From positions 1 through 58,938 of the IMG/VR virus record IMGVR_UViG_3300030114_000013: a DNA stretch of 58,938 bases; one strand, 5' to 3'. The translations under genes and the position numbers were made by a program. The stretch is from a virus. The stretch's first letter is position 1; every line of letters begins with the position of its first letter. Of this stretch, positions 184-28,819 are shown piece by piece. Under the pieces are notes generated by a model. That model made no database searches, was not told where the DNA came from, and saw only the letters and a program-made list of their open reading frames with translations.

Positions 184-294
184 GTGGGTTTAAGAGAATA
201 CGAATAAATTAATATAAATAAGTTAATCAAATGCGTGTTTTAAAGGGAAATTGAACATCAAAAAGTAATAAATCAAAGAAATGGAGTGAAGTTA

Positions 295-1581
295 ATGTTA
301 ACATGTAAAGTTGGTCAAACAGCAGTTGATACATTTACATACAGAGAAGAACAGTTAAGAGAATGGTCTAATAAAGGAATGTTAAAATGTCCTGCTTGTG
401 GAGAGAAAATGTTATATTGTAATGGGGATTTTAAAATTGCCTATTTTAGACATGAAAAGAATAGTGACTGCCCCGATATTTATTCAGAAGGAGTTACGCA
501 AGAACATATACAAGGAATTAAGATATTATATGATTGGTTGAAAATTCAAGAAGGAATAAAAGATTTGCAGTTAGAAAAATGGATTCCAGAAACTCGCCAA
601 CGTCCAGATATTTATTTTATAAAAGATGAAAGGGAATATGCAATTGAATTTCAATGCTCACCTATAGCTACCAAATATAATAAAAGGCATGACTTATATA
701 GATTACAAGGAATAAATGATATTTGGGTTCTTGGAGTAGATAAATATTCAATAAATGAATATGAAAAGATGTTATCTTTAGAATTATTTGAATATAAAAT
801 TAATGATATAAGACTAAAAACAATAGAAGTTGAAATTAATAATTCGAATAATTTTCCATTGATGTATTTAAATAATACAGGAAACCTAATAAAATCAATT
901 GATAAATTGAAAAATGTGTATGGATATAAAACTAAATATAATAACATTATAGATAATAAGAAAATTGAAAATTGTTATCTAAAAGATATTTTAAACAAAG
1001 GTAACTTATATGATGACAATAACCCTTTTAAAATTATCGGCAATGTAATAAAAAATAAAGTTAGTGAATTAAATAAGAGAAGCTATAGTGACAATTATAG
1101 GTTTTCTACATATGTTTTAAGTGGAGGTTCTTATATGGGGATTCGTTCACATAATAAAGGATATATTTATAGAACTACTATTGATGATTTTAATGAAAAT
1201 AAATTAAATGATTTTATTGAATGTGAAATTATCCAAGAAGAAAAAAGAATACAAGAAAACAAAAAAAGGAAAATGGAAATACAAGAAAAGACCATGAAGT
1301 GCGAAAGATTAACAAATCAATTTAAAATTGTAAATAAAAATTGTAAGTTCGAATATGGGAATGGAAATTATGGTTTGTATTTATGGAAAATTATATTTAC
1401 TTGTGATGTATTTGAAAGAACATTTTTCATAAAAGAAAACCAAACAGATTGTACAGAAAAATGTGGTTATTATATAAATTTAGATTGCTATAAGTACAGA
1501 GAATTGAACATAAATAAGGTGTTCGAGTATATATCTAAGAATATATCAAATACTCTTAGAAAAGAAAGATATGGGAGGTGA
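295..1581 (+). CDS. CoiA-like PD-(D/E)XK nuclease family protein
   Basis: The 428-residue product starts with a CPACG zinc-type motif followed by an aromatic and histidine-rich stretch (YFRHE), then T-x-EH and a nuclease-like core with RPDIYF and AIEFQCS (the D and E-x-Q residues expected of a PD-(D/E)XK fold). This order is characteristic of the competence protein CoiA family. The C-terminal half is lysine-rich, partly coiled and not recognised. The start was placed at ATG 295 because GGAG at 283-286 lies 8 bases upstream; an in-frame GTG at 286 would fall inside that site. Known CoiA proteins act in DNA uptake or recombination; in a phage a role in recombination or host-DNA processing is only inference. 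The next gene follows at once with its own GGAGGTG site, suggesting co-transcription. Confidence 0.75.
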   Translation: MLTCKVGQTAVDTFTYREEQLREWSNKGMLKCPACGEKMLYCNGDFKIAYFRHEKNSDCPDIYSEGVTQEHIQGIKILYDWLKIQEGIKDLQLEKWIPETRQRPDIYFIKDEREYAIEFQCSPIATKYNKRHDLYRLQGINDIWVLGVDKYSINEYEKMLSLELFEYKINDIRLKTIEVEINNSNNFPLMYLNNTGNLIKSIDKLKNVYGYKTKYNNIIDNKKIENCYLKDILNKGNLYDDNNPFKIIGNVIKNKVSELNKRSYSDNYRFSTYVLSGGSYMGIRSHNKGYIYRTTIDDFNENKLNDFIECEIIQEEKRIQENKKRKMEIQEKTMKCERLTNQFKIVNKNCKFEYGNGNYGLYLWKIIFTCDVFERTFFIKENQTDCTEKCGYYINLDCYKYRELNINKVFEYISKNISNTLRKERYGR

Positions 1582-1763: not shown

Positions 1764-1802
1764 ATAAATATAATCTAATACAAATATCGAAAGGAGATTA
1801 TT

Positions 1803-4800
1803 ATGAAAGTAATAAAAGAACTAAAAGTTGGAGAAGGCATAAATATTATACAAAGAGAAGGGAAAGATTTAGTATTATCTAAGGAAGGAGGATATAAAAC
1901 AACTTTCACTGATAAAAAAGGAAAAGAGCATAGAAAAAATATATGGAATGCAACTATGGATTGGTGTTTTGATTCAGTTAAAATGAATGAACTAAAAATT
2001 GATAAAGATATGTCCAAGCCTTTTTATATGATTGATGGTAAACAATACTCAGATGCCATAATAAGTGTAAAATTTAAATGTGCAATAAAAGAATCTGAAG
2101 AGATAAATGGATTTAATGAACAATTACTAGAATTAAATAAAACAAATAAAGAACTAGAAACAAAATTAGTAGAACTTAGAAAGCAAGGAATATCATTAAG
2201 ACAATGTAAACATAAAGGAGAATATAAAACTAATCTTACACAAGAACAACAATTATATATTGAATTATATAAAAAACAACAAGATATTACTGAAGAAAAA
2301 AGAAATAAGGTAAAAGAATTAAAAAATCAAAAGAAAAGTGATATACAAAACACTGAACAAATTAGAAAAGAATTATATAAAAATGGATTTGATATAATAG
2401 ATAGTCAAGGTAAAAAATCTCATATGGTTAGATATAAACGTTCTAGTGGTTCTAGTAGAGTTGGAAAATGTTTATTTATAAGAGAAGATTTATATAAGCC
2501 TATGATAGATTGGACTATGATGGATTTATACATAAAAAATGGAGATGAAATTGATTTAGCTAGTTATGAGGCATACATAAGTTTAACACTAAGTTCTATG
2601 ATAGATACTATAGATATAAAACCAGAAAATATACTAATACTTAAAGATGAAGAATCAAAAATAAGAGAAGAATGTATGGTTACTGAACAGATAATAAACA
2701 AAGAAGGAAAAGCAGTATTATGCACAACTAAAAAATATACTGATGTAATAAATAAAATTTGGGATGGAGAAAGTTTGCTTGATAGTAGTTTATTTGAAGA
2801 AAAATATAAGGATAAAGGAATGTTATTGCTAAGAAATAAATTTGTAAAAACATGTGCATTTAATACTAATATTCAGCAATATTATAAAGAATTCAATATA
2901 ACTATGAATGACATAAAAAATAGTAATTGTTATCTTTATACTAAAGCTAAAAAAGTTGAAGACATATTGTTAATAACAACGCCTTCTAGTTTAAAATATT
3001 GTAAATTTGGATTAATTGAAAACTATTTAAGTGACATGAGTTACAAATGGGGAGTTGTTAAATATGACAAACCAACACATTACTTTGATGGAGAATTAGT
3101 CCAAACACATTATCAATTATTAAATTCTCTTAATTGTAATAAAAAAGATATATCAGAAATATTATCTCAAACAAAAGAATACGTAGGTTTATTAAAGAAT
3201 GATATGGCTGTATTAAGGAAGCACTTAAAAATGCAGATAGAACAAAATGAGGATTGTAGATTATCAGATGAAGAGATTGCGACAAGGGAAATAGAAGGGT
3301 TTTACAATGAAGATTATTTAAATATAAACAAAGATAATCATACAAAAGATATGATGTATACTCTATTAACTTTAAACGATAAGATTAAGTTTACTACTGA
3401 ATTCATTAATTTCCAAAAAGATGTTATAAGAGCATACAAAGACAATGCTAGATTAGGGCATATCTTAATTCACGGTAATTATAGCGTATTGTGTGGAAAT
3501 GGAATAGAAATGTTAAAAGGCTCTTGTGGAAAATGGAATATTGAAGACGGTTCAATTATTAAAAAAGGAACAATATACTGTAATAACTTTGAAGAAGTAA
3601 AACTTATAGGTTCAAGAAGTCCTCATCCTTCCCCTAGTTGTATATTTATTTCTAAAAATACAATATACGATGAAATAGATATATATTTTAATAGTAGTAA
3701 ACAAATAGTACATATAAATTCAATAGAAGAGAATAACTTAGAAAAATTATCATCAGCAGATTACGATAGTGACCAAATGCTTCTTAGTGATAATGAAAAA
3801 CTTATTGAAATTGCAGAAAGACATTATAAAGATTATCCTGTATCAGTAAATTGTGTGGTGGGTAAAAAGACTCCTAGATATTATACAGATGAGGACAAAT
3901 GTGATTTAGATGTAAAAACTAGCAAAAATCTTATAGGGCAAATAATAAATCAAGCACAAATTTTAGAGAGTTATTTAAATGATATTAGATTTAAAATAAA
4001 CAAAGAAAAAAATAAAAAAGTTAAACAACAATTGCAAAAAGAAATAGATGATATATTTATTGATATATCTACTTTAAATATAATGTCTTGCATAGAAATA
4101 GACAAAGCTAAAAAAGAATTTGACATTGATAGTGAATCTGAATTAAATAAAATAAAGGATAAATATAGTAATATCAAATTGCCTAATTTCTTTAAATATA
4201 CTGCTAAAAAAACTTATCAAGATAAAAAGGACAAGATAAAAGATAAAATATTAAAGGTTACACCATATGAAAAAGTAGATAAGAACAAGGATACTGAAGA
4301 TATTATCCTAAAAAAGAAAGAAAATAATAAAGTAATTAAAGAGATAATAGATAAAGCAATTTCTTCTATGGAAAAAGAAAAATATGAACATTATAATACT
4401 ACGATGGATTATCTAGAGACTGAAATAGACAAATTTACATATAATAGAAAGACAGACAGAAGAGTTGATAATAAAGACAATATAACTAACATATTAGACT
4501 TATTAACAAATAAATATAAAGAAATATTAAATCATATAAGTGATGCAGATAGAAAACAAATAACTAAAATTATGGACTTAATAATTGATAGTGATAAAAA
4601 AACTAGAGCATTGTGGTGTAATACTAATTTAACTGGTGAAGATAAATATTTTAAAACAATACAATATAGAGTGGAATTGGTAAATAAACTATCTTCATTT
4701 AAAATAAAGTTTGTAACTCTGATATCAATATTAAAACAAATTAAGGAGGGTAAATATAGTAATATAGGAAGAGTTGCATTAAGTGTGCTATATTCTAGTC

Positions 4801-4925
4801 ATAGAGAAATGTTTCTTGAGATGTTCAGAATACAACAAGAAGAAATCGAAATATTGTGTGAGGGAGAAGATATAGAATTATATGGAATGTGTTTTGGCAA
4901 AAAGAAAACTTCTAGAGATATTTAA
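1803..4925 (+). CDS. Putative single-subunit DPBB RNA polymerase (YonO/QDE-1-like)
   Basis: A 1040-residue lysine-rich protein behind a clean AAAGGAG site. Two motifs identify it. First, R605-S-P-H-P-S, preceded by Gly-Ser, resembles the conserved R-x-P-x-x-HPGD segment of cell-type RNA-dependent polymerases and YonO. Second, the acidic triad D653-Y-D655-S-D657, about 45 residues later, matches the D-x-D-G-D metal-binding loop of double-psi beta-barrel polymerases, with Ser replacing Gly. It is followed by a Lys/Asn-rich helix with NLIGQIINQAQ. An N-terminal coiled coil covers about residues 105-190. YonO of phage SPbeta (about 900 residues) is a DNA-dependent RNA polymerase transcribing late phage genes, so the same role is inferred here. 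The HU-like and YonK-like genes nearby also recall the SPbeta yon region. The Ser substitution needs testing. No beta/beta-prime subunit genes are seen. Confidence 0.68.
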   Translation: MKVIKELKVGEGINIIQREGKDLVLSKEGGYKTTFTDKKGKEHRKNIWNATMDWCFDSVKMNELKIDKDMSKPFYMIDGKQYSDAIISVKFKCAIKESEEINGFNEQLLELNKTNKELETKLVELRKQGISLRQCKHKGEYKTNLTQEQQLYIELYKKQQDITEEKRNKVKELKNQKKSDIQNTEQIRKELYKNGFDIIDSQGKKSHMVRYKRSSGSSRVGKCLFIREDLYKPMIDWTMMDLYIKNGDEIDLASYEAYISLTLSSMIDTIDIKPENILILKDEESKIREECMVTEQIINKEGKAVLCTTKKYTDVINKIWDGESLLDSSLFEEKYKDKGMLLLRNKFVKTCAFNTNIQQYYKEFNITMNDIKNSNCYLYTKAKKVEDILLITTPSSLKYCKFGLIENYLSDMSYKWGVVKYDKPTHYFDGELVQTHYQLLNSLNCNKKDISEILSQTKEYVGLLKNDMAVLRKHLKMQIEQNEDCRLSDEEIATREIEGFYNEDYLNINKDNHTKDMMYTLLTLNDKIKFTTEFINFQKDVIRAYKDNARLGHILIHGNYSVLCGNGIEMLKGSCGKWNIEDGSIIKKGTIYCNNFEEVKLIGSRSPHPSPSCIFISKNTIYDEIDIYFNSSKQIVHINSIEENNLEKLSSADYDSDQMLLSDNEKLIEIAERHYKDYPVSVNCVVGKKTPRYYTDEDKCDLDVKTSKNLIGQIINQAQILESYLNDIRFKINKEKNKKVKQQLQKEIDDIFIDISTLNIMSCIEIDKAKKEFDIDSESELNKIKDKYSNIKLPNFFKYTAKKTYQDKKDKIKDKILKVTPYEKVDKNKDTEDIILKKKENNKVIKEIIDKAISSMEKEKYEHYNTTMDYLETEIDKFTYNRKTDRRVDNKDNITNILDLLTNKYKEILNHISDADRKQITKIMDLIIDSDKKTRALWCNTNLTGEDKYFKTIQYRVELVNKLSSFKIKFVTLISILKQIKEGKYSNIGRVALSVLYSSHREMFLEMFRIQQEEIEILCEGEDIELYGMCFGKKKTSRDI

Positions 4926-6703: not shown

Positions 6704-6757
6704 ACTATTATTCACTTTACCTTAAAGGTATAAAATATAATAGAGGGAGACTTGAGT

Positions 6758-8209
6758 ATGAGCAAAAAGAAGAAAAGTGAAGAACATGATTTTAGAATTA
6801 CACCATATCACGTAAATAATTCAGTTACAGGTTCAAGTGTACTTTGTGAAGTAGATGGATTAAAAATATTACTTGATTTAGGAATGTTCCAATCACAAAC
6901 GCATAAGTTAGAAGATATTTATAAGATTAATCATAATAAATTAAAAATACCTTTTGATAAATTAGATTACATAATATTATCATCTGGACATGCTGACCAT
7001 TCATGTGGATTAGGAGTTATTGGTAGAAAAGATGTAAAATTTAACGGAAGAGTTATGGCTACAGAGTTATCTGCTGAATTAATAGCTTTAAATGTAAAAG
7101 ATTCTGCACATTTAATGAGTGGAGAATGTGAAGCTTATAATAAGAATCATAATGCCAATTTAATACCTTTATATAATGATAGTGACGCAGAAAATGCTTT
7201 AAGTTATATTCAAGGTTATGGACATAATGAAAAGATAAAATTAAATGACAAAGTTTCATTTGAGTTTTTACCTAATGGACATTTAAGTGGTGATGGTAGT
7301 ATTTATATTACATATCAAAAAGATGAATATACAAAGAAAAGATTACTATATACTGGGGATCACAATTTTGGTAGAGAAAAACCATTCACTAAAAAGTGGG
7401 TAGAAAAATGCTTAAAGGCAGATTGTATAATTAGTGAATCAACCTATAGTGGAAAAGGTCATTTAAAACAAAATAATTTTAAAGTTTTGGAAGATGCAAT
7501 TTTAGATGTATGTGTTAATAAAAAAGAAATTCTATTTATACCAACTTTTGCAATACATAGACAAACAGAAGTAGTATATATGTTAAAACAAATATTTGAT
7601 AAAAATAAGGTATTAAAGAATTCAAATATACCAATTTATTCGGCAGGAGTAATGAGTGCAAAAGCACATAGAATACTAGGTAATCCAAAATATAAATGTT
7701 TCTATGATGAAAAATGGCAAGATTTAGATGATGTTTTTGAATGGGAAGGTGTAACTCATATAGAAAGATTTAAAGATGTATCAGAGAAATTGGTAGATAA
7801 TAAGGTAAAAATAATACTATCAAGTTCAGGTATGCTTAGTGGAGGATATGCAAGTTATTTAGCTAGTTGTTTTGTCAATAGATCTAATGTAAGCTTTTTA
7901 TTCAGTGGCTATCAAGCAATTGGTAGTGTTGGAGATAAGATAATGAGTCAAGAACATAAAACAGTATCTATTCAAGGAAAAGCCTATCTAATTAAAGCTA
8001 ATTCATTAGGTAAGCTAGATTTAAGTGGGCATGCTGGAAATGATGAATTAATAGGTTTAATAAAATCTGTAAATCAAAAAGTATTAAAGAAAATAATTTT
8101 GATACATGGAGATGATGATAGAAAAGAATTATTAAAAGGCCAATTAGAAAAAGTGTTAAATGATAAAGAAATTATTATTCCTAAAGTGGGAGAAGTAATA
8201 AAATTTTAA
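6758..8209 (+). CDS. Beta-CASP metallo-beta-lactamase RNase-like protein (altered motif 2)
   Basis: A 483-residue protein behind AGGGAGA; ATG 6758 is preferred to TTG 6752. Motifs of the CPSF/RNase J superfamily appear in order: the motif-2 region S76-G-H78-A-D80-H81, GH-x-SGD (motif 3), LYTGDH (motif 4), the beta-CASP acid in SESTYSGK, SSSGMLSGG, and a late SGHAG-DEL with IHGDDD. In active members motif 2 reads H-x-H-x-D-H, so the first metal-binding His is Ser here. The remaining ligands are kept, so the protein may bind one metal, have changed activity, or be a non-catalytic binder. It lies beside the YonK-like gene. A role in trimming phage RNA or attacking host RNA is inferred only. Confidence 0.8.
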   Translation: MSKKKKSEEHDFRITPYHVNNSVTGSSVLCEVDGLKILLDLGMFQSQTHKLEDIYKINHNKLKIPFDKLDYIILSSGHADHSCGLGVIGRKDVKFNGRVMATELSAELIALNVKDSAHLMSGECEAYNKNHNANLIPLYNDSDAENALSYIQGYGHNEKIKLNDKVSFEFLPNGHLSGDGSIYITYQKDEYTKKRLLYTGDHNFGREKPFTKKWVEKCLKADCIISESTYSGKGHLKQNNFKVLEDAILDVCVNKKEILFIPTFAIHRQTEVVYMLKQIFDKNKVLKNSNIPIYSAGVMSAKAHRILGNPKYKCFYDEKWQDLDDVFEWEGVTHIERFKDVSEKLVDNKVKIILSSSGMLSGGYASYLASCFVNRSNVSFLFSGYQAIGSVGDKIMSQEHKTVSIQGKAYLIKANSLGKLDLSGHAGNDELIGLIKSVNQKVLKKIILIHGDDDRKELLKGQLEKVLNDKEIIIPKVGEVIKF

Positions 8210-8244: not shown

Positions 8245-8451
8245 ATGGCTAAAAAAGCAATATCAGAAAAGAAGGTAACTACAACAAAATTATCATTAGA
8301 AGGAACTTTAAATTTAGATGAATTATCTGGATTTTTAATGGAATTCGAAGAAGAAGGCGAAAAAAACGTTGATGAAAAGTTAAAGAAATATAACGGTAGA
8401 TATGGTGTATTGACTTTCGCTATTAAAGAGGAAGAAGATATAGAAGATTAG
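8245..8451 (+). CDS. Small acidic protein, possibly YonK-like
   Basis: A 68-residue protein with a basic N-terminus (AKKAISEKK), an acidic centre and a C-terminus reading KKYNGRYGVLTFAIKEEEDIED. The pattern of a short beta-rich protein ending in (F/Y)NGK-x-V-x-I-x-(V/I)KEE resembles SPbeta YonK, a small protein of unknown function encoded near the YonO polymerase. That resemblance is from memory and is modest. A strong AAAGGAGAG site precedes the ATG. The gene is the last one before the structured non-coding block. Confidence 0.6.
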   Translation: MAKKAISEKKVTTTKLSLEGTLNLDELSGFLMEFEEEGEKNVDEKLKKYNGRYGVLTFAIKEEEDIED

Positions 8452-8459: not shown

Positions 8460-9235
8460 AGGCATGTACTCATTGAGAGGTGACCTTAAAACAACTATTT
8501 TACGTTAATCGTCCGAGGGTAACGGGGATATAAATATTTAGAATATTATCCATATGCTTGTGATGGGAATTGCCTACATTAGTCTGAGCCATTAAATTTA
8601 TCGAAGTAGAGATGTGAAACCTACTCGATTCTAGAGTTAACTATGAAAAATCGGTGAGTTTCTACCTTAGTGGTTATTTTATCAAGATGTGGTCTCAGCA
8701 TGTAAAATCAGAGAAAGTTGTGATAATTTCAAACAACTATAAAAAGCTTTCAAGATGGGAAGTCGTGAAATGTGGGAAGGTTATAGCAAATAATATTAGG
8801 ATATAACCAAAGTAATTTTTCGGTGGATTAAAATTATATTATTTAGATGTTATCATAGCATACCAAAAACGAAATAGATAACAATGTGTATCTATTAAGC
8901 AATAAATTAAATGTCGCTTCAAGATTAGGTATTTAATTTGCTTTATAATGGTTTTATGTTTACCAAAACTTGAATAGGATTAACAATCTGAAAGAAAACA
9001 TATGATTTTGAAGATAGGCTTTACGCCAGTGATTTAATAATTAATTAGATAAAACTTGGTTTTCTAGAAACCAGTAGATACATTAAGTTCTATACATCTT
9101 ATATATGTATCATAAAATCTAATGTTTAATAGGGTATGAAAACCTAACAAAATGCTGAATTGAGTTTTGATGACTGAATTAATATAACATTAGACGTAAT
9201 ACAATCATAGCAGGTACGTTAAGCTTGCTTTTTAA
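8460..9235 (+). ncRNA. Large highly structured non-coding RNA candidate (ROOL/GOLLD-like class)
   Basis: Nearly 790 bases without a credible ORF separate 8451 from a tRNA, in a genome whose other gaps are mostly short. The block is packed with stems: TCGAAGTAG (8601-8609) with CTACTCGA (8621-8628); AGTTGT (8716-8721) with ACAACT (8733-8738); GGTTATA (8779-8785) with TATAACC (8802-8808); AATAGATA (8873-8880) with TATCTATT (8889-8896); AAGCAA..ATTAAAT (8897-8912) with ATTTAATTTGCTT (8931-8943); GATACAT (9077-9083) with ATGTATC (9105-9111); and a 9-bp closing stem TCTAATGTT (9118-9126) with AACATTAGA (9186-9194). Giant ornate phage RNAs (ROOL, GOLLD) are known to lie next to phage tRNA genes and have this size. 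Class membership is inferred from size, position and structure, not from a covariance model. Confidence 0.6.
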
Positions 9236-9814: not shown

Positions 9815-11209
9815 ATGGAAGATAATAAATCATTAGAAAGACTATATGGTGAAAGTGAAAATGAATATATTGCTAGAGCTTACAGAAATAAAATAGATTT
9901 AGGATTAACAAACAAAGAACTGGCAACTCAATTGAATCAAAATTTGGGCACAAACTATGGAGAATCAACATTACGTGGACGTGGGCAATATTTCAACGAA
10001 GGGTATGAAAACGGATGGGAGAAAGCTTTAAGTAACTTAAAAAATGAAGATTCGGAAGAACTAACTAGTTTGAAATTAAAAAATGACAATGGATATGAAC
10101 AAATTAAAAATTATAAAGAAACTGTTGAAATAAACAAAGATGGTTCTTATACATTAGATAAATTAATAGGTGTGGAAAACGAAGAAGTTTTAAAGGATGA
10201 AAATTATTTATTAACTTGTCATGGATATGATCCTAAGTTATGGCAAATTGTTTCAGCTAGAAATAGTAAATGGAATGTACAATTAAAAGGTGGGAAAGTT
10301 AGTAAACTATATGCTAGTAGAGTTAATATTAAACCTAGAGTTGATGATATTAATATATTAGAATTAGAAGAACATTTTAATAAATTTCAAAAAACATATA
10401 AAGGAATTGATATTCCTAAATTTTCTAATAAAAATGCAGACAACATATTGGTGCTTCCGGTTTACGACTTGCATTTCGGTAAGAAATCTTATGAATATGA
10501 AACAGGAAGTAAAATTGATGATGAAATATTAAAAGAAAGATACATAAATGTTTTAAAAGACATTATTGACCAAGCAAAACATAGTAATTTTGAGAAAATA
10601 ATATATCCAATAGGTAGTGATTTCTTTAATAGTGATACTATAGATAACTCTACTACAAAGGGAACAAGTCAAGATAATAGTTTAAGATGGCAAGAAATGT
10701 TTACTAAAGGATTAGATTTAATTATAGAAGGTGTTGATTTACTGTCTAAAGAATTAAAAACCAAAGTAGAAATATTCTATGTTATGGGAAACCATGATAC
10801 TATGTCTTCTTTTTATGCAACAAGATATTTACATGCGTGGTATAAAGACTGTAATAACGTGTTTATTGACTCAAATGCCAAAGCTAGGAAATATATTGAA
10901 TATGGAAAATGTTTAATAGGATTTACTCATGGAGATAAAGAAGGGAAAAGAATATTTAATTTAATGCAAACCGAACAATCTGAAGCATGGGGAAGAACTA
11001 AGTATAGAGAATGGTTAACTGGTCACGTTCATCATGAAACTGTTAAAGAAGAAGGTGGAGTTAAAGTTAGAACTGTATCTGCTATATGTGGAACTGATGC
11101 TTGGCATTATTTAAGTGGTTTTGTGGGAAGTTTAGAGCAAGTACAAGCTTTTGTTTGGAATAAGAATAAAGGTTTAAGAAGTATTATATATGGAAGTATT
11201 GAGAATTAG
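9815..11209 (+). CDS. Calcineurin-like metallophosphoesterase
   Basis: A 464-residue protein with the complete metal-binding set of the superfamily: D218-x-H220 in VYDLHFGK, GSD269, G-N-H-D at 325-328, and G-H-V-H-H at 403-407. The N-terminal 200 residues are a separate, phage-type domain with a probable helix-turn-helix near residues 30-55 (NKELATQLNQ) and no known catalytic motif. Related phage proteins are often found beside head genes and are thought to act on DNA ends or nucleotides, like SbcD-type nucleases. The substrate cannot be read from the sequence. A good AGGTGAGG site precedes the ATG. Confidence 0.85.
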   Translation: MEDNKSLERLYGESENEYIARAYRNKIDLGLTNKELATQLNQNLGTNYGESTLRGRGQYFNEGYENGWEKALSNLKNEDSEELTSLKLKNDNGYEQIKNYKETVEINKDGSYTLDKLIGVENEEVLKDENYLLTCHGYDPKLWQIVSARNSKWNVQLKGGKVSKLYASRVNIKPRVDDINILELEEHFNKFQKTYKGIDIPKFSNKNADNILVLPVYDLHFGKKSYEYETGSKIDDEILKERYINVLKDIIDQAKHSNFEKIIYPIGSDFFNSDTIDNSTTKGTSQDNSLRWQEMFTKGLDLIIEGVDLLSKELKTKVEIFYVMGNHDTMSSFYATRYLHAWYKDCNNVFIDSNAKARKYIEYGKCLIGFTHGDKEGKRIFNLMQTEQSEAWGRTKYREWLTGHVHHETVKEEGGVKVRTVSAICGTDAWHYLSGFVGSLEQVQAFVWNKNKGLRSIIYGSIEN

Positions 11210-11232: not shown

Positions 11233-11844
11233 ATGGTGAAAGTTATGGGAGAGATGTTTGTACCAGTGAATAGATTACTTGAATCTATGAAAGAGTATGA
11301 TTATTTACATAAAAATATAATTTATCTAGATGATGAAGTTTCTAGAGATACACAAGTAATGTTTTGTAGACAATTAAGAAAATTAGCTGAACAGGAGTTA
11401 GTTAAACCTGAAAAAGATAGACAATCTATAAAAATAAGGATTTCAAGTTTTGGTGGTTGGGTTGTAAGTTTTATGGCTATGGCAAGTGAAATGTTACATT
11501 ATCAAGAAAAAGGAATAATAATAGAAACTTATTGTGATGGATTCTGTATGTCAGCAGGAGCATACTTATTAATGTTAGGTTCTAAAGGATATAGACATGC
11601 AACTAGATTTTCAGATATATTAATTCATCAAACTCAATTCTCAGGAAGTGGACATCAAACTTACAGAGAAAAAGAAAAGAGTTTTGAATATGACAAAAGA
11701 GATTGGAAAATGTTGTGTGATTTAATGAGACAATATACTAATTTATCTGAAGAAGATATTGAAGGATTAACTAAATACAATCTTGATGTATCATTCAGCA
11801 GTTCTGAAGCATTAGAAAAAGGCATAGTGGATAAAATAATATAA
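11233..11844 (+). CDS. ClpP-like serine protease
   Basis: A 203-residue protein matching the Clp protease fold: a first strand IIYLDDEVSRDT, the glycine-rich oxyanion strand RISSFGGWV, the nucleophile region G103-F-C-M-S107-A-G with Ser107, H132 in LIHQ, and a candidate third acid D185 in LDVSFSSSEALEKG. The family cuts proteins inside a barrel, usually with an ATPase partner. Phage ClpP-like proteins can serve as head maturation proteases, but this one lies upstream of terminase and a separate protease/scaffold gene is present, so its target is uncertain. The start is not decided: ATG 11233 has only a weak AAGGA site, and ATG 11245 is the alternative. Confidence 0.82.
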   Translation: MVKVMGEMFVPVNRLLESMKEYDYLHKNIIYLDDEVSRDTQVMFCRQLRKLAEQELVKPEKDRQSIKIRISSFGGWVVSFMAMASEMLHYQEKGIIIETYCDGFCMSAGAYLLMLGSKGYRHATRFSDILIHQTQFSGSGHQTYREKEKSFEYDKRDWKMLCDLMRQYTNLSEEDIEGLTKYNLDVSFSSSEALEKGIVDKII

Positions 11845-14010: not shown

Positions 14011-15060
14011 GTGGTGAAAAAATCACAGGGTAATACGGAAATGACAGATAGAGAATTAATATATTGTACAGGTTGTGATCACGATAAAAAACCTAGTCAG
14101 TTTTATAAAAGTTATGGGACAACAAAATCAGGCACGTTGCCTTATTGTAAGCAATGTTGTATAGATATGAGTTTGAATAATAATGGAACATTAAATATTG
14201 ATAAATTCAACAATATGTTATCTAAAGTAGATAGACCTTTTTTACATCAAACATTAATTGATAATATGAATAAGTATCCAGAAAAAATAGAGTCTGCTAT
14301 AGGATTTTATTTTAAAGATTTAGGAATGGTTCAGAATAGGGGGTTAAAGTATAAAGATAGCATTTTTGAACCCAGCAATACGAATGGAAATTCAGAAATT
14401 GATATTACCACAAAGAAAAACAATTTTGAAATAGATGGCATGACTTCTGAACAATTGCAAGATAAATTTGGTGTAGGTTATACAGATGAAGAATATTATT
14501 GTTTTGAAAAAAAATGGAGAAAGCTTGCAGATAGTTATGGTCAAAAAACTTCGCTACATGTAGAGTCTTTAACTACATATATAAGATTTAGAGTAAAAGA
14601 AGAATTGGCAACATCAAAGGGAGACGTATCAGAAGCTACAAAATGGGGGCAACTAGCAGAAAAAGCACAACAATCTGGAAAATTAAATGTAGCACAATTA
14701 AGTAAGTCTGATATTAGTGGTGGAGTAGACTTAGTTTGTCAAATTTTTGAAGCAGTTGAATCGGAAGTTGGTGTAATACCATTATTACCTAAGTTAATAG
14801 AACAACCAATGGACGACGCAGATATGGTTATATGGTCATTAATAAATTATGGAAGGACATTAGAAGATAAACCAAGAGTTAAATACAAAGAGATATGGAA
14901 TTTTTATAAAGATATGTTAGGTGAATATTGTGGAGACAAGGGTATGACAGAGGAACAAAAAGAAGAGTATTTAAATAAAAGAAATAATACTTTTAGAGAT
15001 TTAGGAAAATTATATAAAGAACCATTATATGAAGGTGACTATGAAGAAGGTGGTGAATAA
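14011..15060 (+). CDS. Terminase small subunit-like protein with zinc ribbon
   Basis: A 349-residue protein directly upstream of, and overlapping by one base with, the large terminase gene (TAATG). It starts at GTG 14011 (or GTG 14014) after AAGGAGGTG. The N-terminus has a treble-clef style zinc site: C-x2-C in YCTGCD and CKQC about 25 residues later. GLKYKDSIFE around residue 110 marks homology to the protein at 5435. The C-terminal two thirds carry helical segments and a very acidic end. Position and domain type support DNA recognition for packaging; the unusually large size suggests extra functions. Confidence 0.75.
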   Translation: MVKKSQGNTEMTDRELIYCTGCDHDKKPSQFYKSYGTTKSGTLPYCKQCCIDMSLNNNGTLNIDKFNNMLSKVDRPFLHQTLIDNMNKYPEKIESAIGFYFKDLGMVQNRGLKYKDSIFEPSNTNGNSEIDITTKKNNFEIDGMTSEQLQDKFGVGYTDEEYYCFEKKWRKLADSYGQKTSLHVESLTTYIRFRVKEELATSKGDVSEATKWGQLAEKAQQSGKLNVAQLSKSDISGGVDLVCQIFEAVESEVGVIPLLPKLIEQPMDDADMVIWSLINYGRTLEDKPRVKYKEIWNFYKDMLGEYCGDKGMTEEQKEEYLNKRNNTFRDLGKLYKEPLYEGDYEEGGE

Positions 15061-16829
15061 TGGCATCACAGAATAATTTTAAAACAGAAAACAATAACAA
15101 ATCTAAAGATAGAAATGACATATATAATTCAGCATTTGAAAGTCCTTTGCAAGAATCTGATATATCTTCATCAATAATAACTAGACATAAAGGTGAATTG
15201 TCAACATTGTGTTCTTATTTGAGATTTTACCCTGATATATTTTATGACATGTTAACTCCTGAAAAGGGGGGGATAAAATTAGATTTATATCAAAGAGTTA
15301 TGATGAGAAGTTTAGCTAGGTTTCCAGAATGTTATTTTTGTATCCCAAGAGGTGGTTCTAAGACACTGACTCAAATAATGGTATGTTATCATACTGCAAT
15401 TTGTTACCCTAATATCACAGTTGCAATAACAGCATCTACAAAAGAAAGTGCAGTTAAAATATGGAAGGAAAAACATGAAGAAATATTAAGATATTATCCT
15501 TCTATTAGAGATGAAATAAAAAGTGCTAACTTTTCAAAAGACACTGGTAGAGTTGAATTTCAAAATGGTGCAGTAATAGATAATCTTGCCAATGCTCAAA
15601 CAAGCAAGGGATTACGTAGAAGAAGGGGTTCGTTGGAAGAATCAGCTTTAATAGATAAAGATTTATATGAAGATGCGATTGAGCCAATATTTAATGTACC
15701 TAGAGTTACCATGTCTGGAGAAATAGATCCAACTGAATTAAATGGTCAAATAAATAGATTCTCAACTTCGGGATATAAAAATTCTGACGAATATGAAAAA
15801 ATACTGACAATGACTAGAGATATGTATGACTTGAATGGGTCTTTTGTTTTTGGCTCAGATTGGTACATACCTGTTCATTTTGGTAGACAAAAACGTTCAA
15901 CTATAGATAAAGCTAGGCGTGGTAATGTAATTAGATTTAAACAAAACTATTTATGTGAATGGATAGGTGTAAGTGACGGTGGATTAGTTAATATTAGTAA
16001 ATTAATGAAAGCAATGATTTTAGAAAAACCAGAAATCGAATGTCCTAAAGATAAAAACGGAAAGTGTTTATTAAACGAGTATGTAATAAGTGCTGATATT
16101 GCAAGAAGTAATTCAGAGAACAATAATAAAACTCAAATTGTTGTATTGAAAGTAATAAGAGATAAAAGTGGAAGAGTTCGTCAAGTCCAAGCAGTTAACA
16201 TAATAAATCCTCCAAATGGATTAAATTATGAAGAACAATCAATAGTAATTAAAAGAATATTTTATAAATATGGTGGACATTTAGATATGAATAAATCAAG
16301 AGTAAAAGCCATAATTATTGATGCCAACGGAGTAGGTCAAGGCGTCGTGGAAAAATTATTAGAAGAACAAACAGATTACCAAACTAATGATGAATTAGGA
16401 GCTTTCGCAACAATTAATACAGAAGATAAATGTCAACCTTATGCACCTAAATTGGTTTATGCATTAAAAGCACAAGGAATAAATTCAGATATAATAAGAA
16501 TTTTTATTGGATATGTAGAATCTAGCCAATTAAAGTTATTAAGAAAAATAGATGATATGAAAGACAATGATGAATTTATGGGGTTAGAATCATCATTAAA
16601 AGATTCTATGGAACATGCATGTTTAAACACACAATTTTTAATAGATGAAGTATCAAATTTAAAATTAAAAAAGACCGAGTCTAGTGGAAAATATAGTGTT
16701 GAACAAGTTGTAAAACGTGTAGACAAGGATAGATGGTCAGCGTTAGTTTATGGATTATATTATATAGATGTGTTTATGAATGAAGAAGAAATTCCAGAAG
16801 ATGATGATGATGACTTAGTATACTATTAA
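15060..16829 (+). CDS. terL: Terminase large subunit
   Basis: A 589-residue packaging motor. The ATPase half has a Walker A-like IPRGGSKT (residues 95-102), a TASTKESA motif, and the Walker B/catalytic pair GSLEESALID with Glu193-Glu194. The nuclease half has the acidic residues in ISADIAR, IIIDANGVG and DKDRWSALVYG, expected of the RNase H-like fold that cuts concatemers. The acidic tail (EEIPEDDDDD) may contact the portal. Together with the preceding small-subunit gene it forms the packaging complex docking on the portal encoded next. Nothing suggests truncation. Confidence 0.95.
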   Translation: MASQNNFKTENNNKSKDRNDIYNSAFESPLQESDISSSIITRHKGELSTLCSYLRFYPDIFYDMLTPEKGGIKLDLYQRVMMRSLARFPECYFCIPRGGSKTLTQIMVCYHTAICYPNITVAITASTKESAVKIWKEKHEEILRYYPSIRDEIKSANFSKDTGRVEFQNGAVIDNLANAQTSKGLRRRRGSLEESALIDKDLYEDAIEPIFNVPRVTMSGEIDPTELNGQINRFSTSGYKNSDEYEKILTMTRDMYDLNGSFVFGSDWYIPVHFGRQKRSTIDKARRGNVIRFKQNYLCEWIGVSDGGLVNISKLMKAMILEKPEIECPKDKNGKCLLNEYVISADIARSNSENNNKTQIVVLKVIRDKSGRVRQVQAVNIINPPNGLNYEEQSIVIKRIFYKYGGHLDMNKSRVKAIIIDANGVGQGVVEKLLEEQTDYQTNDELGAFATINTEDKCQPYAPKLVYALKAQGINSDIIRIFIGYVESSQLKLLRKIDDMKDNDEFMGLESSLKDSMEHACLNTQFLIDEVSNLKLKKTESSGKYSVEQVVKRVDKDRWSALVYGLYYIDVFMNEEEIPEDDDDDLVYY

Positions 16830-16879: not shown

Positions 16880-18475
16880 TTGGATAATATAAATGAATTT
16901 CAACAGTTGTATTATAATTCAACAGAAAACTCTAAAAAATATCAAGTAAAAGAAGATACCTATTCAAATGGTGTAAAAATGAATATTCTAAATACAACTA
17001 TTGATCGAGACGTTGATGTTAGTTCTTATGGGTTTAAAACGAATATGTTTAGACAAGGCATGACACCCGATATAAATATAAAAAAAGTAGAGCAATGTTT
17101 AAAAAACCCTGAAACTAACAAAAAAATATTATCCCAATTATCTAAATGGTATTACATTTCCAATGGTGAAGTATTTCAGTTATATGATTTAGCAAGAGTA
17201 TTATCTTCATTAGATTATAAAATAAATTGTATTGAAAAAGATAGTAAATATGATAAAAACGTATTATCTATAAAAAAAGAATTAAGAAAAGTAAATCATA
17301 AAGAAATATCAAGAGATATAATAACTCAGCTAGTTACTACTGGTACAGTAGTTGGATTATGGTTGGATAACAATGGAGAATATTATCCTTATATATTTGA
17401 TGATCTTGAATATGTATTTCCTGCTTATAGAGAAAAAGGTAAATGGGTTATTTGGTTTGATTTAGCATATTTAAATACGTTTTCTGATATTGAAAGAAAA
17501 GTTTATTTGGAGGGTTTAAAACCATACATAACAATTGAAGATTATGATAATTATGTAGCAAATTCAACTAAGTGTAGATATATACAATTCCCAATAGAAA
17601 GAAGTATTTGTATTAGAACTCATACAGTATCTAGAAATCAGAGATTTGGGATACCTTGGTCTACACAAGCAATAGGTGATATAAATCATAAAAAGAAATT
17701 AAAAGACTTGGAAAAATCTGTAGCAAATAAAATTATAAATGCTACTGCAATATTAACAATAGGAGATGAACAAAATCCAAATTTAAAACTTGGTAAAAAT
17801 GCAAAGACAAAAGTATTTGGTGGAGTTAAGAAAGCATTAACTGAAAATGAAGAAGATGGTGGAGTTTCGGTAGTAGCTATTCCTGAATGGACTAAAATGG
17901 AATTCCAAAAGATAGGGAAAGAACCGTTAGACCCTGATAAATTTGAGAGTGTTAATAGTGATGTTCAGAATGATTTAGGATATGCAAAAGGACTGATAAC
18001 TGGTAAAGAAGGTAATTATGCTAGTAATAATTTAAGTTTAACTATTTTTTACATGAAACTTGGTGAAATATTAGAAAACATTGAAAGTGAAGTATTCAAT
18101 AAATTAATAAACTTATTATTAAAAGACAAATATTCTGATATCTTTTATTTAGAATATGATAAGTCTATTCCTTTAGATAAGAAAACAAAATTAACTACTT
18201 TATCTATTATGGAAGCACAAGGATATACTATAAAACCTATTCTTGAATTAATGGGAATTGATTATATGGAATATATTGAGCAATCTAAATACGAAATTGA
18301 AACACTGAAACTTAGAGAAAAGATAACTCCACCAATGAATACTAACAATATAAGTGCAAACGATCCTAATAAAACAGTTGGTAGAACAGAAGACACAAGT
18401 AATTTAAATAGTTCGACTGTTACAAGTAAAGAATCAAACGGGAATGCAAACCCAAAGCCAACTAATAGTAAATGA
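16880..18475 (+). CDS. Portal protein
   Basis: A 531-residue protein in the expected place after TerL. It starts at TTG 16880 behind AAAGGAGGG; the ATG inside the ribosome site is followed at once by a stop. It shows the portal pattern: an alpha/beta stem region, a clip-like segment around HTVSRNQRFGIPWSTQAIGDI, a long helix (LKDLEKSVANKIIN), and the late wing region with LDPDKFESVNSDVQNDLG. The last 60 residues are Thr/Ser/Asn-rich and low-complexity. It forms the dodecameric DNA gate of the head. The assignment rests on order and overall pattern. Confidence 0.85.
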   Translation: MDNINEFQQLYYNSTENSKKYQVKEDTYSNGVKMNILNTTIDRDVDVSSYGFKTNMFRQGMTPDINIKKVEQCLKNPETNKKILSQLSKWYYISNGEVFQLYDLARVLSSLDYKINCIEKDSKYDKNVLSIKKELRKVNHKEISRDIITQLVTTGTVVGLWLDNNGEYYPYIFDDLEYVFPAYREKGKWVIWFDLAYLNTFSDIERKVYLEGLKPYITIEDYDNYVANSTKCRYIQFPIERSICIRTHTVSRNQRFGIPWSTQAIGDINHKKKLKDLEKSVANKIINATAILTIGDEQNPNLKLGKNAKTKVFGGVKKALTENEEDGGVSVVAIPEWTKMEFQKIGKEPLDPDKFESVNSDVQNDLGYAKGLITGKEGNYASNNLSLTIFYMKLGEILENIESEVFNKLINLLLKDKYSDIFYLEYDKSIPLDKKTKLTTLSIMEAQGYTIKPILELMGIDYMEYIEQSKYEIETLKLREKITPPMNTNNISANDPNKTVGRTEDTSNLNSSTVTSKESNGNANPKPTNSK

Positions 18476-18490
18476 TGAGGTGATTAAAAT

Positions 18491-18637
18491 ATGGACGATG
18501 TATTAGTTTGTAAGAAAGAAAAATATTGTGAAATATTTATAAATGGGACAACTGCAATATTAGATTATTTAAATTTCCCACAAATTAAAGACATGACCGA
18601 TGCCGAAATAATAGAATTTTATAATAATGGTTTTTGA
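18491..18637 (+). CDS. 48-residue hypothetical protein
   Basis: A short ORF with a very good GAGGTGA site seven bases before ATG 18491 and another gene close behind, so it is probably translated. The product is slightly acidic, with KKEKYCEIFINGTTAILDYL and a C-terminal helix (MTDAEIIEFYNNGF). No known family is recognised. It lies between portal and protease, a location where small head proteins are often found. Confidence 0.6.
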   Translation: MDDVLVCKKEKYCEIFINGTTAILDYLNFPQIKDMTDAEIIEFYNNGF

Positions 18638-18656
18638 TGAAAGGAGGTGATGTAAT

Positions 18657-20186
18657 GTGGACGTAGCAAGAACTTTACAAATGAAACTGGAAAGTTTTAG
18701 TAAAGTTTATAATGAAAATAATATAGAAGACCCTACTCTAATTAAAGCTACTTTTATTATATTAGAAGTTGATTCAGTTAGTGGAAATAATGAAGTAATA
18801 ACAAAAGAAGAAGCTTTAAAAATGTCCCCAACTATGGCATTGAAACCACTTGTATGTCAATATACTCCAACGACAAATTATATAATCCCAGATGACCATT
18901 TTGGTTCTCATGGAAAAATAAAAGATAATTTTAGAAAAAATGGAGCAGAACTTATTACAACAAATAGTTTTGCTATAGGAGTATCTAAAGATGGTTGTTA
19001 TATGTCTACAATTGAAAAAGATGGACAAACAGTTGAGGTATTAAAATGTGACTATTATTTATGGTTAACAAGATATTTAAATATCTGTTCTCTTATGGAA
19101 GACATTTATAATAGTGGAACAGATTTATATTCAAGTTGTGAATACATTTATAAAGCAGAAGACGTAGACACGATAGAAGGCGTTAAGTATCCTAAAAATT
19201 TAATATTTGAAGGACATTGTTTATTGGGTTCAAGAAATGATGGTTCAATAGTAGAACCAGCTTTTGAAGTATCTAAAATGACAACCTTTAATGAAAAATG
19301 GACAAGTGTGCTTAATGAAACTATAAATAAAACATTAAATAATAAGGAGGAAGAAGAAATGGCTTTTAAAAAAGAAGATTGGATAACCATTGTTAACGAA
19401 TTATCTCATGGAGATATAAAAGGTAGCTTGTATACTGCATTATCAAAAGTAATGATAGCAGATGATTTTTATGGGGTATGGATAAGTAATTATGATGTAT
19501 ATGATACTTATTTCGTATATGATGTTTATGAAGGTGATTCATATAAACACTATAAGGTAAATTATACAAAAACAGATACAGATGTAACTATAGACTATGC
19601 TAATAAAGTATTAGTAGAATGGACTGACTTATGGGTAGAAGTATCTGCAAGTACTACTGCTGTAACTGATGCTGTTATAACTGTTGAAACTACAATGAAT
19701 GAAAAAATTGTAGAAAAAGATAACACAATAAAATCCCTTAATGACAAAATTACAAATTTAGAAGGGGAGAAAGTTTCTTTAAATGAAAAGTATACAAAAG
19801 CAAGTGATACTATAACTTCACTAAATGAAAAGGTTACAGAATTACAACCTATTGTAGATACTTATAATAAAGGACAATATGAAAGTCAATTAAATGAAAA
19901 GAAAACTTATTATGAGAATAAATTTACAAGCTTAAATGCAATTGATAAATTTAATTCAAATGAAGTTCAAAACTTAATTGTTAAGTCTTTAAATGAAATT
20001 GAAGCTAAAGAAAAATTAAGCGATATGCTTATTGAATTAGTTCCAATAACAAATGAAGTTTCAAAAATAAATGGCAATATTACGATACCAAGTAACGCTG
20101 TTAAAACATTAAATTCAATGTCTGATATAGAAATACCAAATGAGGCAGAAGTAAAAAATGATTTTGATAGCCAATTTACAATATAA
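18657..20186 (+). CDS. Capsid protease/scaffold fusion
   Basis: A 509-residue protein starting at GTG 18657 behind AAAGGAGGTGA. The N-terminal 225 residues are a compact domain with GHCLLGSRNDGSIVEPAF late in it; such a domain just before the capsid gene is expected to be the prohead protease, although a clear catalytic triad was not read. Then comes the spacer KEEEEMAFKKED and a C-terminal scaffold-like part with a coiled coil at about residues 345-400 (repeats of SLNEK/LNDK). An internal ribosome site makes the scaffold part available on its own (next entry). The arrangement recalls protease/scaffold pairs such as lambda C/Nu3. Confidence 0.7.
   Translation: MDVARTLQMKLESFSKVYNENNIEDPTLIKATFIILEVDSVSGNNEVITKEEALKMSPTMALKPLVCQYTPTTNYIIPDDHFGSHGKIKDNFRKNGAELITTNSFAIGVSKDGCYMSTIEKDGQTVEVLKCDYYLWLTRYLNICSLMEDIYNSGTDLYSSCEYIYKAEDVDTIEGVKYPKNLIFEGHCLLGSRNDGSIVEPAFEVSKMTTFNEKWTSVLNETINKTLNNKEEEEMAFKKEDWITIVNELSHGDIKGSLYTALSKVMIADDFYGVWISNYDVYDTYFVYDVYEGDSYKHYKVNYTKTDTDVTIDYANKVLVEWTDLWVEVSASTTAVTDAVITVETTMNEKIVEKDNTIKSLNDKITNLEGEKVSLNEKYTKASDTITSLNEKVTELQPIVDTYNKGQYESQLNEKKTYYENKFTSLNAIDKFNSNEVQNLIVKSLNEIEAKEKLSDMLIELVPITNEVSKINGNITIPSNAVKTLNSMSDIEIPNEAEVKNDFDSQFTI
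19359..20186 (+). CDS. Nested scaffold protein from an internal start
   Basis: GGAGG at 19346-19350 lies exactly 8 bases before an in-frame ATG (19359) inside the protease gene, a spacing as good as any real start in the window. The product would be 275 residues (codon 235 onward), beginning MAFKKED and holding the coiled coil and C-terminal capsid-binding part without the protease domain. Scaffold made in excess of protease by such an internal start is well known in tailed phages. Translation from here is inferred from the ribosome site. Confidence 0.6.
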   Translation: MAFKKEDWITIVNELSHGDIKGSLYTALSKVMIADDFYGVWISNYDVYDTYFVYDVYEGDSYKHYKVNYTKTDTDVTIDYANKVLVEWTDLWVEVSASTTAVTDAVITVETTMNEKIVEKDNTIKSLNDKITNLEGEKVSLNEKYTKASDTITSLNEKVTELQPIVDTYNKGQYESQLNEKKTYYENKFTSLNAIDKFNSNEVQNLIVKSLNEIEAKEKLSDMLIELVPITNEVSKINGNITIPSNAVKTLNSMSDIEIPNEAEVKNDFDSQFTI

Positions 20187-20221
20187 AAAACAAAATAAAT
20201 TAAGAAAGAAGGAATATTAAT

Positions 20222-20815
20222 ATGTCAAGTAGATTTGTAGATTATTTAAACACAAGAGGAACTTACGCAGTAGGTAACTTAAATTCATGGGAAATGGAAC
20301 AAGTAAATCAAGGTGCATTAGTAAAAGATGCCTCAATAGAAAATTTTACAATGGTTGAGTTATTCTTTGAGAATGAAGATCCAACTGACCTAACTACACC
20401 AGTAGTAAGAAAATGTAAAAAATTAACTGATGGGACTAAACCACAATATTTAATTGCTTCAGTAGAAAGAAGAGTATTCGAAAATGACAATGTCTTAGGG
20501 CTAATGCAAGAAGAATTAAGTGATTTTTATAATGCAAAAGGAGAACAAGGAGCAATTTACCATATTCCAATAGGAAAAAGAATTCAAGTTTCTAAATTTG
20601 CAATGTGTGCTGAAACAGGAAAAGAAGTTACTGCAATTGTAAATGGTATGGGTGCATATTTTGATGCAACATTAGGAAAATTCGTAATTGTTGATTTAAC
20701 AAAAATCCCAACAAATTATACTAATTCAACTAAAAAGTTCGTAGTAGTTGCAAATGGCGATGAAATTGCAACATTATGTGGACAACAATTAGTTGGATTA
20801 GAAGCTATATCTTAA
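20222..20815 (+). CDS. Probable head decoration or accessory capsid protein
   Basis: A 197-residue protein between scaffold and major capsid genes, each with its own AGAAGGAAT-type site. It is beta-rich and neutral, with no cysteine-rich or catalytic motif; the segment GEQGAIYHIPIGKRIQVSKF and the C-terminal KKFVVVANGDEIATLC look like strands. The place is typical of decoration proteins that bind the outside of the capsid, but the sequence alone does not prove that. Confidence 0.55.
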   Translation: MSSRFVDYLNTRGTYAVGNLNSWEMEQVNQGALVKDASIENFTMVELFFENEDPTDLTTPVVRKCKKLTDGTKPQYLIASVERRVFENDNVLGLMQEELSDFYNAKGEQGAIYHIPIGKRIQVSKFAMCAETGKEVTAIVNGMGAYFDATLGKFVIVDLTKIPTNYTNSTKKFVVVANGDEIATLCGQQLVGLEAIS

Positions 20816-20846
20816 TAAAATAATAAAAGAAAGAAGGAATTAAATT

Positions 20847-21890
20847 ATGTTAGACGAAAAAAAATTAGTAAAATTAGGAATTAAAGTATACAATGAAAAA
20901 GCGGATATGACATTAGATGAAAAAACTAATAAATATACTGCATGTGATGATGGATATATAAAACAATTATGTCAAAAAACCTTTGGAGATGGTTCGTTAA
21001 ATCCAGATCCTTCAATGTTACATCAATTCAATAATATATTAGTAAAAACTGCTGATTATGTGGTTGAACCAACAGTTACAGAAATGTTAAATACAATGGC
21101 GAATTTTCAAGCTGTTGATGTAACTACTACTGTAATATATGATGTTCCACAATTAATTAACAGACCTAAAATTATGTATAGTGCTGTAGGTTCTACTGCT
21201 GATTTAATCAGAATGAGCCAAGATACAAAAAAAGTACCAGCTCAAAGAAGAGTACATACTTTTGCACTTTATTACAATCCATTAGATTTTGTAACTGATT
21301 CAGTTAAAACATTTAATGACACAATCAATATGTTGGCTGAGGAAAAATTAAGAAGATATTTTGGATTAGTAATGCAATGTATTGATAAAGCAGTCGCTTC
21401 ACACGACATCCCTGCTAAAAATAATTTAAAAACTTCTAATATAACTATGGGAGACTATAGAAAATTAGAAAATAGATTTATCAGATGGGGTGGAAAGCCA
21501 GTATTAATTGCTGACGCTACTTTAATTGACGCATTAGCTTCACAATTAGTTCAAACAACAAGTCAATATAGAAGTGAATCATATGCTGATGAATTAAGAG
21601 AAGCAATGCAAATTACAAATTTCTCTAGAACAACTGCTGTAAATATAAATAACCCATTTATTGATAAGGCTGGTGATAAAACTCAATATCCAGAAGGAAC
21701 AGGTTATATATTTGCTGGTTCTATATCTGGTAAGAAACCAGTTCAAATCACTGAATTTGGTGGAATGAGACAAACATCAGAACAAAATAACACAGATAAG
21801 AGAATTAAAATGCAAGTAGATTGGGAAGCCGACGTAACTTTGCTTTTTGGAAGACTAATCGGAGTTGTTAAGGACGATGCTATTCTATAA
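20847..21890 (+). CDS. Major capsid protein
   Basis: A 347-residue protein after scaffold and decoration genes. It has the features of HK97-fold capsid proteins of Firmicute phages: an N-terminal helical arm, a long beta-strand pair around TTTVIYDVPQLINRP, a spine helix in the middle (KLRRYFGLVMQCIDKAVA), and a C-terminal GRLIGVVKDDAIL that ends in a strand. No truncation is seen. It should form the icosahedral shell; the hairpin directly after the gene fits a highly expressed, stable messenger. Confidence 0.85.
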   Translation: MLDEKKLVKLGIKVYNEKADMTLDEKTNKYTACDDGYIKQLCQKTFGDGSLNPDPSMLHQFNNILVKTADYVVEPTVTEMLNTMANFQAVDVTTTVIYDVPQLINRPKIMYSAVGSTADLIRMSQDTKKVPAQRRVHTFALYYNPLDFVTDSVKTFNDTINMLAEEKLRRYFGLVMQCIDKAVASHDIPAKNNLKTSNITMGDYRKLENRFIRWGGKPVLIADATLIDALASQLVQTTSQYRSESYADELREAMQITNFSRTTAVNINNPFIDKAGDKTQYPEGTGYIFAGSISGKKPVQITEFGGMRQTSEQNNTDKRIKMQVDWEADVTLLFGRLIGVVKDDAIL

Positions 21891-21908
21891 TTGATAAATT
21901 AAAACAAT

Positions 21909-21930
21909 TAGGAGGAATAATTTCCTCCTA
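21909..21930 (+). other. Strong hairpin after the capsid gene
   Basis: TAGGAGGAA (21909-21917) pairs with TTCCTCCTA (21922-21930) with a 4-base loop and no T run behind it. It probably stabilises the capsid mRNA or weakens transcription slightly. The 3' arm is itself an anti-Shine-Dalgarno sequence. Confidence 0.6.
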
Positions 21931-21958
21931 TATAAACAAATTAAAGGAGAGAATTAAG

Positions 21959-22423: not shown

Positions 22424-22454
22424 TAAAATAAATAAAAAATAGGAGGTGGTTTAT

Positions 22455-24109: not shown

Positions 24110-24124
24110 AGGAGGGTGAAGTTA

Positions 24125-25550: not shown

Positions 25551-25552
25551 TC

Positions 25553-25585
25553 AAAAGACTACTTAAATTTATAGGTAGTCTTTTT
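25553..25585 (+). terminator. Intrinsic terminator before the tail tube gene
   Basis: AAAAGACTACTTA (25553-25565) pairs with TAGGTAGTCTTTT (25572-25584, one mismatch), followed by TTTTTG. It separates the head module from the tail module. Confidence 0.85.
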
Positions 25586-25627
25586 GTTATATAAAAAAAA
25601 TAAATAATGAAAGTGAGGAAATATAAA

Positions 25628-26870: not shown

Positions 26871-26901
26871 ATAATAAATTAAAAATAAAGGAGAAAAAAT
26901 A

Positions 26902-28813: not shown

Positions 28814-28819
28814 ATTATA

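What the first reader, a model, noticed from the sequence alone, without database searches (positions are those of the whole stretch)
1803..4925. A phage-encoded single-chain RNA polymerase candidate with an altered catalytic loop (DYDSD)
Seen: a 1040-residue protein with R605-S-P-H-P-S followed by D653-Y-D-S-D657. Known: SPbeta YonO and eukaryotic QDE-1-type polymerases share R-x-P-x-x-HPGD and D-x-D-G-D. Here the loop has Ser for Gly and the first motif ends PS instead of GD. Inference: a diverged DNA-dependent RNA polymerase that could transcribe the phage late genes. If so, the window describes a phage with its own transcription system in an unusual branch of the family.
Basis: partly seen in the sequence, partly recalled or inferred. 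Interest (0 to 1): 0.9.

Follow-up and report, generated by a model that had tools for sequence, protein, structure and literature searches.

The report
YonO-type single-chain phage RNA polymerase
This clostridial-type phage carries its own one-piece RNA polymerase of the kind known from Bacillus phage SPbeta, and the supposedly odd catalytic loop (DYDSD) turns out to be the normal form in a large, untested branch of that enzyme family.

Summary
In detail: one intact 1040-residue ORF (1803-4925, +), with R605-SPHPS and D653-YDSD-657. It is a YonO-type single-chain RNA polymerase. Profile-profile comparison of its clade with the SPbeta YonO clade gives probability 100, E 2e-44, with motifs in register. 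An AlphaFold model (pLDDT 84) matches the two-barrel polymerases QDE-1 and RDR2 along most of their length (E 3e-13). Eighteen residues, including all three catalytic Asp, are invariant in 110 diverged sequences including SPbeta YonO. The gene order RNAP, HU, exonuclease, terminase is shared with SPbeta-type phages. The 'altered' loop is not peculiar to this phage: DxDSD is found in 101 of the 110 sequences and marks one large clostridial branch. SPbeta YonO itself has RSPH rather than HPGD. Transcription of this phage's late genes is likely but inferred: the gene lies upstream of the head-tail-lysis cluster. No promoter was found. Side leads: introns cut the catalytic loop in about a dozen relatives; one sub-branch lies beside relaxase and recombinase genes of mobilizable elements. 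The apparent link to ROOL, GOLLD and drum RNAs failed its control.

The parts
1803..4925 (+). YonO-type single-chain RNA polymerase, 1040 aa
   Evidence: ORF; phrog_8308 (unknown function) E 4e-73; hhalign to YonO clade E 2e-44; fold match to QDE-1
1791..1796 (+). Shine-Dalgarno AAGGAG of the polymerase gene
   Evidence: sequence
2763..2996 (+). Region of the first barrel: D321-G322, R344, K349, K398 (invariant basic residues)
   Evidence: invariant in 110 sequences; DG...R...KG of the YonO clade aligned to QDE-1
3615..3773 (+). Second barrel motifs R605-S-P607-H to D653-Y-D655-S-D657 (catalytic Asp triad 3759-3773)
   Evidence: strands at 600-604, 615-619, 635-638, 658-662 in the model
4098..4112 (+). 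I-D767-K-A-K770 helix motif
   Evidence: D767 and K770 invariant; counterpart in YonO clade aligned with QDE-1 VDQSK
286..1581 (+). CoiA-like nuclease-domain protein, upstream neighbour
   Evidence: Pfam CoiA_nuc 4e-23; 43% identical over 209 aa to the same neighbour of the YonO-like gene in Bacillus phage BUCT082
6334..6639 (+). HU-like DNA-binding protein (YonN counterpart)
   Evidence: Pfam 2e-10; 35% identical to SPbeta YonN
6752..8209 (+). beta-CASP metallo-beta-lactamase RNase-like protein
   Evidence: Pfam, NCBIfam
8245..8451 (+). 68-aa ORF, possible YonK-like protein (weak)
   Evidence: Pfam YonK E 0.038, below cut-off; position as in SPbeta
8897..9006 (+). drum RNA in the non-coding gap before the late module
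   Evidence: Rfam RF02958 54.7 bits; 8839-9006 is 95% identical in L002, L005 and L006
9239..9325 (+). tRNA-Tyr (gta)
   Evidence: ARAGORN
9815..11209 (+). metallophosphatase-type exonuclease (same position as YonJ)
   Evidence: phrog_704 DNA repair exonuclease 1.5e-72; direct BLASTP to YonJ not significant
11233..11844 (+). ClpP-like protease
   Evidence: Pfam 1e-20
15060..16829 (+). large terminase (start of head genes)
   Evidence: phrog_15503 8e-60; phrog_5909 terminase 2.5e-5
16880..55890 (+). late genes: portal, virion proteins, tape measure, tail fibre, holin, endolysin (a repressor-like gene lies on the - strand at 29711-30655)
   Evidence: PHROGs

Best explanation
The gene encodes a YonO-type single-chain RNA polymerase. 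Two double-psi beta-barrels on one chain form the active site: the first supplies invariant basic residues (R344, K349, K398), and the second holds a metal ion through D653, D655 and D657 in a DYDSD loop. It most likely makes RNA from the phage's DNA and drives the head, tail and lysis genes that follow it, starting somewhere in the non-coding gap (8452-9800) between the polymerase/HU module and the exonuclease/terminase module. Shown here: family membership, fold, invariance of the catalytic residues, gene order, purifying selection. Inferred from SPbeta YonO: DNA-template use, late-gene transcription, start site.
For: hhalign of the window clade with the SPbeta YonO clade: prob 100, E 2e-44, 547 columns, triad in register. 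The YonO clade in turn finds QDE-1 with the triad in register (E 0.011). AlphaFold model pLDDT 84, pTM 0.78; the 21 significant Foldseek hits in the PDB are all QDE-1 or RDR2 chains, E 3e-13 to 2e-9, about 940 columns for QDE-1. 18 invariant residues across 110 sequences including SPbeta YonO. dN/dS 0.08-0.12. Neighbours CoiA-like, HU, exonuclease and terminase shared with SPbeta-type phages; of 133 loci with at least 7 kb downstream, 77 have the exonuclease, 60 HU and 54 terminase downstream. The window's late genes follow the gene. YonO is a proven DNA-dependent RNA polymerase needed for SPbeta late genes; its three-Asp mutant is inactive (PMC5467207).
Against: No activity data for any DxDSD member. 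Direct tblastn of the single proteins is weak (22.5% identity, E 1e-5 to the BUCT082 relative) and phmmer finds no solved relative. No repeated promoter-like sequence links the gap to other late regions. TM-scores to QDE-1 are only 0.37-0.45 with large rmsd, so domains are placed differently. Several GenBank relatives are labelled 'RNA-dependent RNA polymerase'.
Confidence: 0.85

Rival explanations
1. It copies RNA rather than DNA, like the eukaryotic silencing polymerase QDE-1, for example to make double-stranded RNA in the host.
For: Closest solved folds are QDE-1 and RDR2; GenBank names of relatives.
Against: SPbeta YonO, which is nearer in sequence and shares the gene neighbourhood, strictly prefers DNA templates (PMC5467207). 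No YonO structure was among the Foldseek matches, so the QDE-1 hit does not discriminate between the two.
Confidence: 0.06
2. It is a polymerase that does not serve late genes, but works in replication (primer synthesis) or transcribes an early or middle set.
For: Neighbours include HU and an exonuclease, which are DNA-metabolism genes.
Against: The same kinds of neighbours surround SPbeta yonO, which is a late-gene polymerase. Terminase follows within 10 kb in many relatives.
Confidence: 0.07
3. The Ser in the loop marks a dead or merely structural polymerase.
For: SPbeta YonO has Gly at this place, and so does QDE-1.
Against: All three Asp and the basic residues are invariant over about 100 diverged sequences of this branch, and selection is strongly purifying. 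The only exceptions within the branch are at the Ser (Val, Ala), never at an Asp.
Confidence: 0.02

Closest known systems
YonO of Bacillus phage SPbeta (NC_001884 yonO, 839 aa)
   Same: Single chain; RSPH and Asp-triad motifs; 18 shared invariant residues; HU, YonK and exonuclease downstream (CoiA-like gene upstream in the relative BUCT082); phage of a Gram-positive host
   Different: About 17-20% identity; loop is DNDGD in SPbeta against DYDSD here; the window protein is 200 residues longer; beta-CASP and ClpP genes, a drum RNA and a tRNA in the neighbourhood
QDE-1 (Neurospora RNAi polymerase; PDB 2j7n, 7y7p-7y7t)
   Same: Fold match along most of the chain; two barrels on one chain; Asp triad in the second barrel
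   Different: About 11% identity; eukaryotic silencing enzyme solved with RNA and with DNA templates; DYDGD loop
phrog_8308 and GenBank phage proteins called 'RNA-dependent RNA polymerase' (PMBT24, TR-TP1, Perkons)
   Same: Same family at sequence level (E 4e-73 to the PHROG)
   Different: The PHROG has no function assigned; the listed phages have DFDGD or DNDGD loops
Multi-subunit RNA polymerases of cells and jumbo phages
   Same: Barrel and Asp-triad chemistry (established knowledge)
   Different: Two separate large subunits with many further domains; only about 80-column, non-significant fold matches here

Membership tests
YonO-like single-chain RNA polymerase | Sequence homology to YonO over the catalytic region | tested here: met
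   hhalign prob 100, E 2e-44 over 547 columns
YonO-like single-chain RNA polymerase | Both double-psi barrels on one chain | tested here: met
   One ORF; model matches QDE-1 over about 940 columns. Barrel topology inferred from that match and strand order, not traced strand by strand
YonO-like single-chain RNA polymerase | Catalytic Asp triad | tested here: met
   D653, D655, D657 aligned to the YonO triad; invariant
YonO-like single-chain RNA polymerase | Invariant basic residues of the first barrel | tested here: met
   R344, K349, K398 invariant in 110 sequences including YonO
YonO-like single-chain RNA polymerase | Gly in the loop (DxDGD) as in SPbeta YonO (a recalled trait, not taken here as defining) | tested here: not met
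   Ser656; BUCT082 has Tyr and 105 of 110 sampled sequences lack Gly here, so it does not define the family
YonO-like single-chain RNA polymerase | DNA-dependent RNA synthesis | not testable with these tools
   needs purified protein
YonO-like single-chain RNA polymerase | Transcribes phage late genes | not testable with these tools
   gene order agrees; no promoter motif found
   window has RSPHPSPS; Neurospora QDE-1 itself has RSPAHFPSD

The most novel reading that the evidence does not exclude
The DxDSD polymerases form a functionally distinct branch: the Ser beside the metal-binding Asp changes fidelity, metal or template use, and the branch has spread beyond phages into mobilizable elements, where it transcribes the element's own genes.
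Probability: 0.2. Interest if true: 0.65.

Novelty: new member of a known kind. Interest (0 to 1): 0.42.

Why it matters
Only one YonO enzyme (SPbeta, DNDGD loop) turned up with published biochemistry. The window gives an intact member of the much larger, apparently untested DxDSD branch with its phage context, useful for asking how little is needed for a two-barrel RNA polymerase and whether the loop Gly matters. It also gives a likely function to phrog_8308, now listed as unknown.

Tried and rejected
Pfam, NCBIfam and PDB sequence searches with the single protein find nothing useful. Promoter search: sigma-70-like hits near chance level; no repeated element shared by the gap and other parts of the window beyond what a coding control region gives. 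Idea that large ornate RNAs (ROOL, GOLLD, drum) mark the polymerase's start site: they were seen downstream of the gene in several phages, but GOLLD is in only 2 of 42 records (two near-identical phages), and 17 regions around drum hits and one around a ROOL hit, picked without reference to the polymerase, have none within about 9 kb, so rejected as a specific link. Broader ROOL surveys failed on the server.

Full report
Observation. The ORF at 1803-4925 is intact, starts with ATG behind AAGGAG, and encodes 1040 residues with R605-SPHPS and D653-YDSD-657. Close relatives in three metagenomic phages (79-91% identical) show dN/dS of 0.08-0.12.

What it is. Library searches with the single protein give only phrog_8308, function unknown, at E 4e-73. 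tblastn of annotated phages gave three uncultured gut phages and, at 22.5% identity, a 924-aa protein of Bacillus phage BUCT082, a Spbetavirus. That protein in turn finds yonO of SPbeta (NC_001884) and its relatives. I built separate alignments of the window clade (A4, 14 sequences) and the YonO clade (A3, 5 sequences including SPbeta yonO). They match with probability 100 and E 2e-44 over 547 columns, with DxDSD aligned on DxDGD. The YonO profile reaches QDE-1 in the PDB with E 0.011 and the catalytic loop in register. An AlphaFold model from 39 permitted relatives has pLDDT 84 and pTM 0.78; its significant PDB matches are all QDE-1 and plant RDR2, 21 chains at E up to 2e-9, then nothing significant.

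The motifs. Across 110 non-redundant sequences, 18 residues never change: G195, L261, D321, G322, R344, K349, K398, Y437, Q438, R605, P607, D653, D655, D657, G712, N716, D767, K770. The loop residue is Ser in 101 of the 110 and Gly in five; the rest are Ala (two), Val and Tyr. The Ser sequences fall in one clade (support 0.95), which also holds the Ala and Val cases, with the window beside Clostridium prophages. DxDSD is therefore a branch feature, not an oddity of this phage.

How it works. In QDE-1 the first barrel supplies basic residues and the second the metal-binding Asp triad (PMC1750930). In YonO, changing the triad to Asn abolishes RNA synthesis, and loss of the gene silences 37 SPbeta genes, including structural and lysis genes, transcribed from a start upstream of yonK (PMC5467207). 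The window has a similar order: CoiA-like gene, polymerase, HU, beta-CASP protein, weak YonK-like ORF, non-coding gap, exonuclease, then terminase, portal, tail, holin and endolysin, all on the + strand apart from one repressor-like gene. Of 133 related loci with at least 7 kb downstream, 77, 60 and 54 have exonuclease, HU and terminase downstream. I infer that it transcribes the late genes from the gap at 8452-9800. I could not find a promoter.

Limits. No biochemical data exist here for any DxDSD member; the catalytic and late-gene roles are carried over from YonO. The tree rests on a fast method.

Known or new. It is a new member of the YonO-like kind. What appears untested in the literature I could search is the DxDSD branch, though only open-licence papers were held.

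Noticed in passing
L010, L062-L066, L069, L071, L080, L146, L152, L157, L164: In about a dozen relatives the polymerase gene is interrupted exactly at the catalytic loop (first piece ends ..RLSGAD or ..LNG, next begins FDSD/DFDSD) by inserts of 0.25-1 kb, some with an HNH endonuclease ORF. They look like introns: one weak group I match (25 bits, L063), none in L066; L054 and L064 have a clear group I intron at a second site (73.7 bits)..
   Followed up: partly
L138-L176 (e.g. L150:7677-16216), L009:4048-11820: A sub-branch of mostly DYDSD polymerases (26 tips in the tree) lacks the phage neighbours. In about a third of the loci compared the gene is followed by relaxase, NikA/MobC-like and serine recombinase genes (as in L150), as in mobilizable elements; L009 has a MobL relaxase and tyrosine integrases..
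   Followed up: partly
L174, positions 61 and 7632: One Ruminococcus contig encodes two YonO-like polymerases, one with DYDGD and one with DFDSD.
   Followed up: no
window 8897-9006; L002:16470-16580; L008:11858-12348; L020:13435-13522; L054:14959-15536; L064:8265-8843; L092:9979-10044: Structured RNAs of different families (drum, GOLLD, skipping-rope, ROOL, DUF3800-VIII) lie downstream of the polymerase gene in several phages; in SPbeta the hit is in the yonN-yonK gap. Control searches from the RNA side did not find the polymerase nearby.
   Followed up: yes
window 6752-8209: beta-CASP metallo-beta-lactamase protein, nearest to the NCBIfam models of type VII CRISPR Cas14 and archaeal aCPSF1 but far below their cut-offs; a relative lies downstream of the polymerase in 12 of 133 loci.
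   Followed up: no
window 57162-58292: Homing endonuclease-like protein (phrog_7168 8e-21; GIY-YIG family also matched) near the window end.
   Followed up: no
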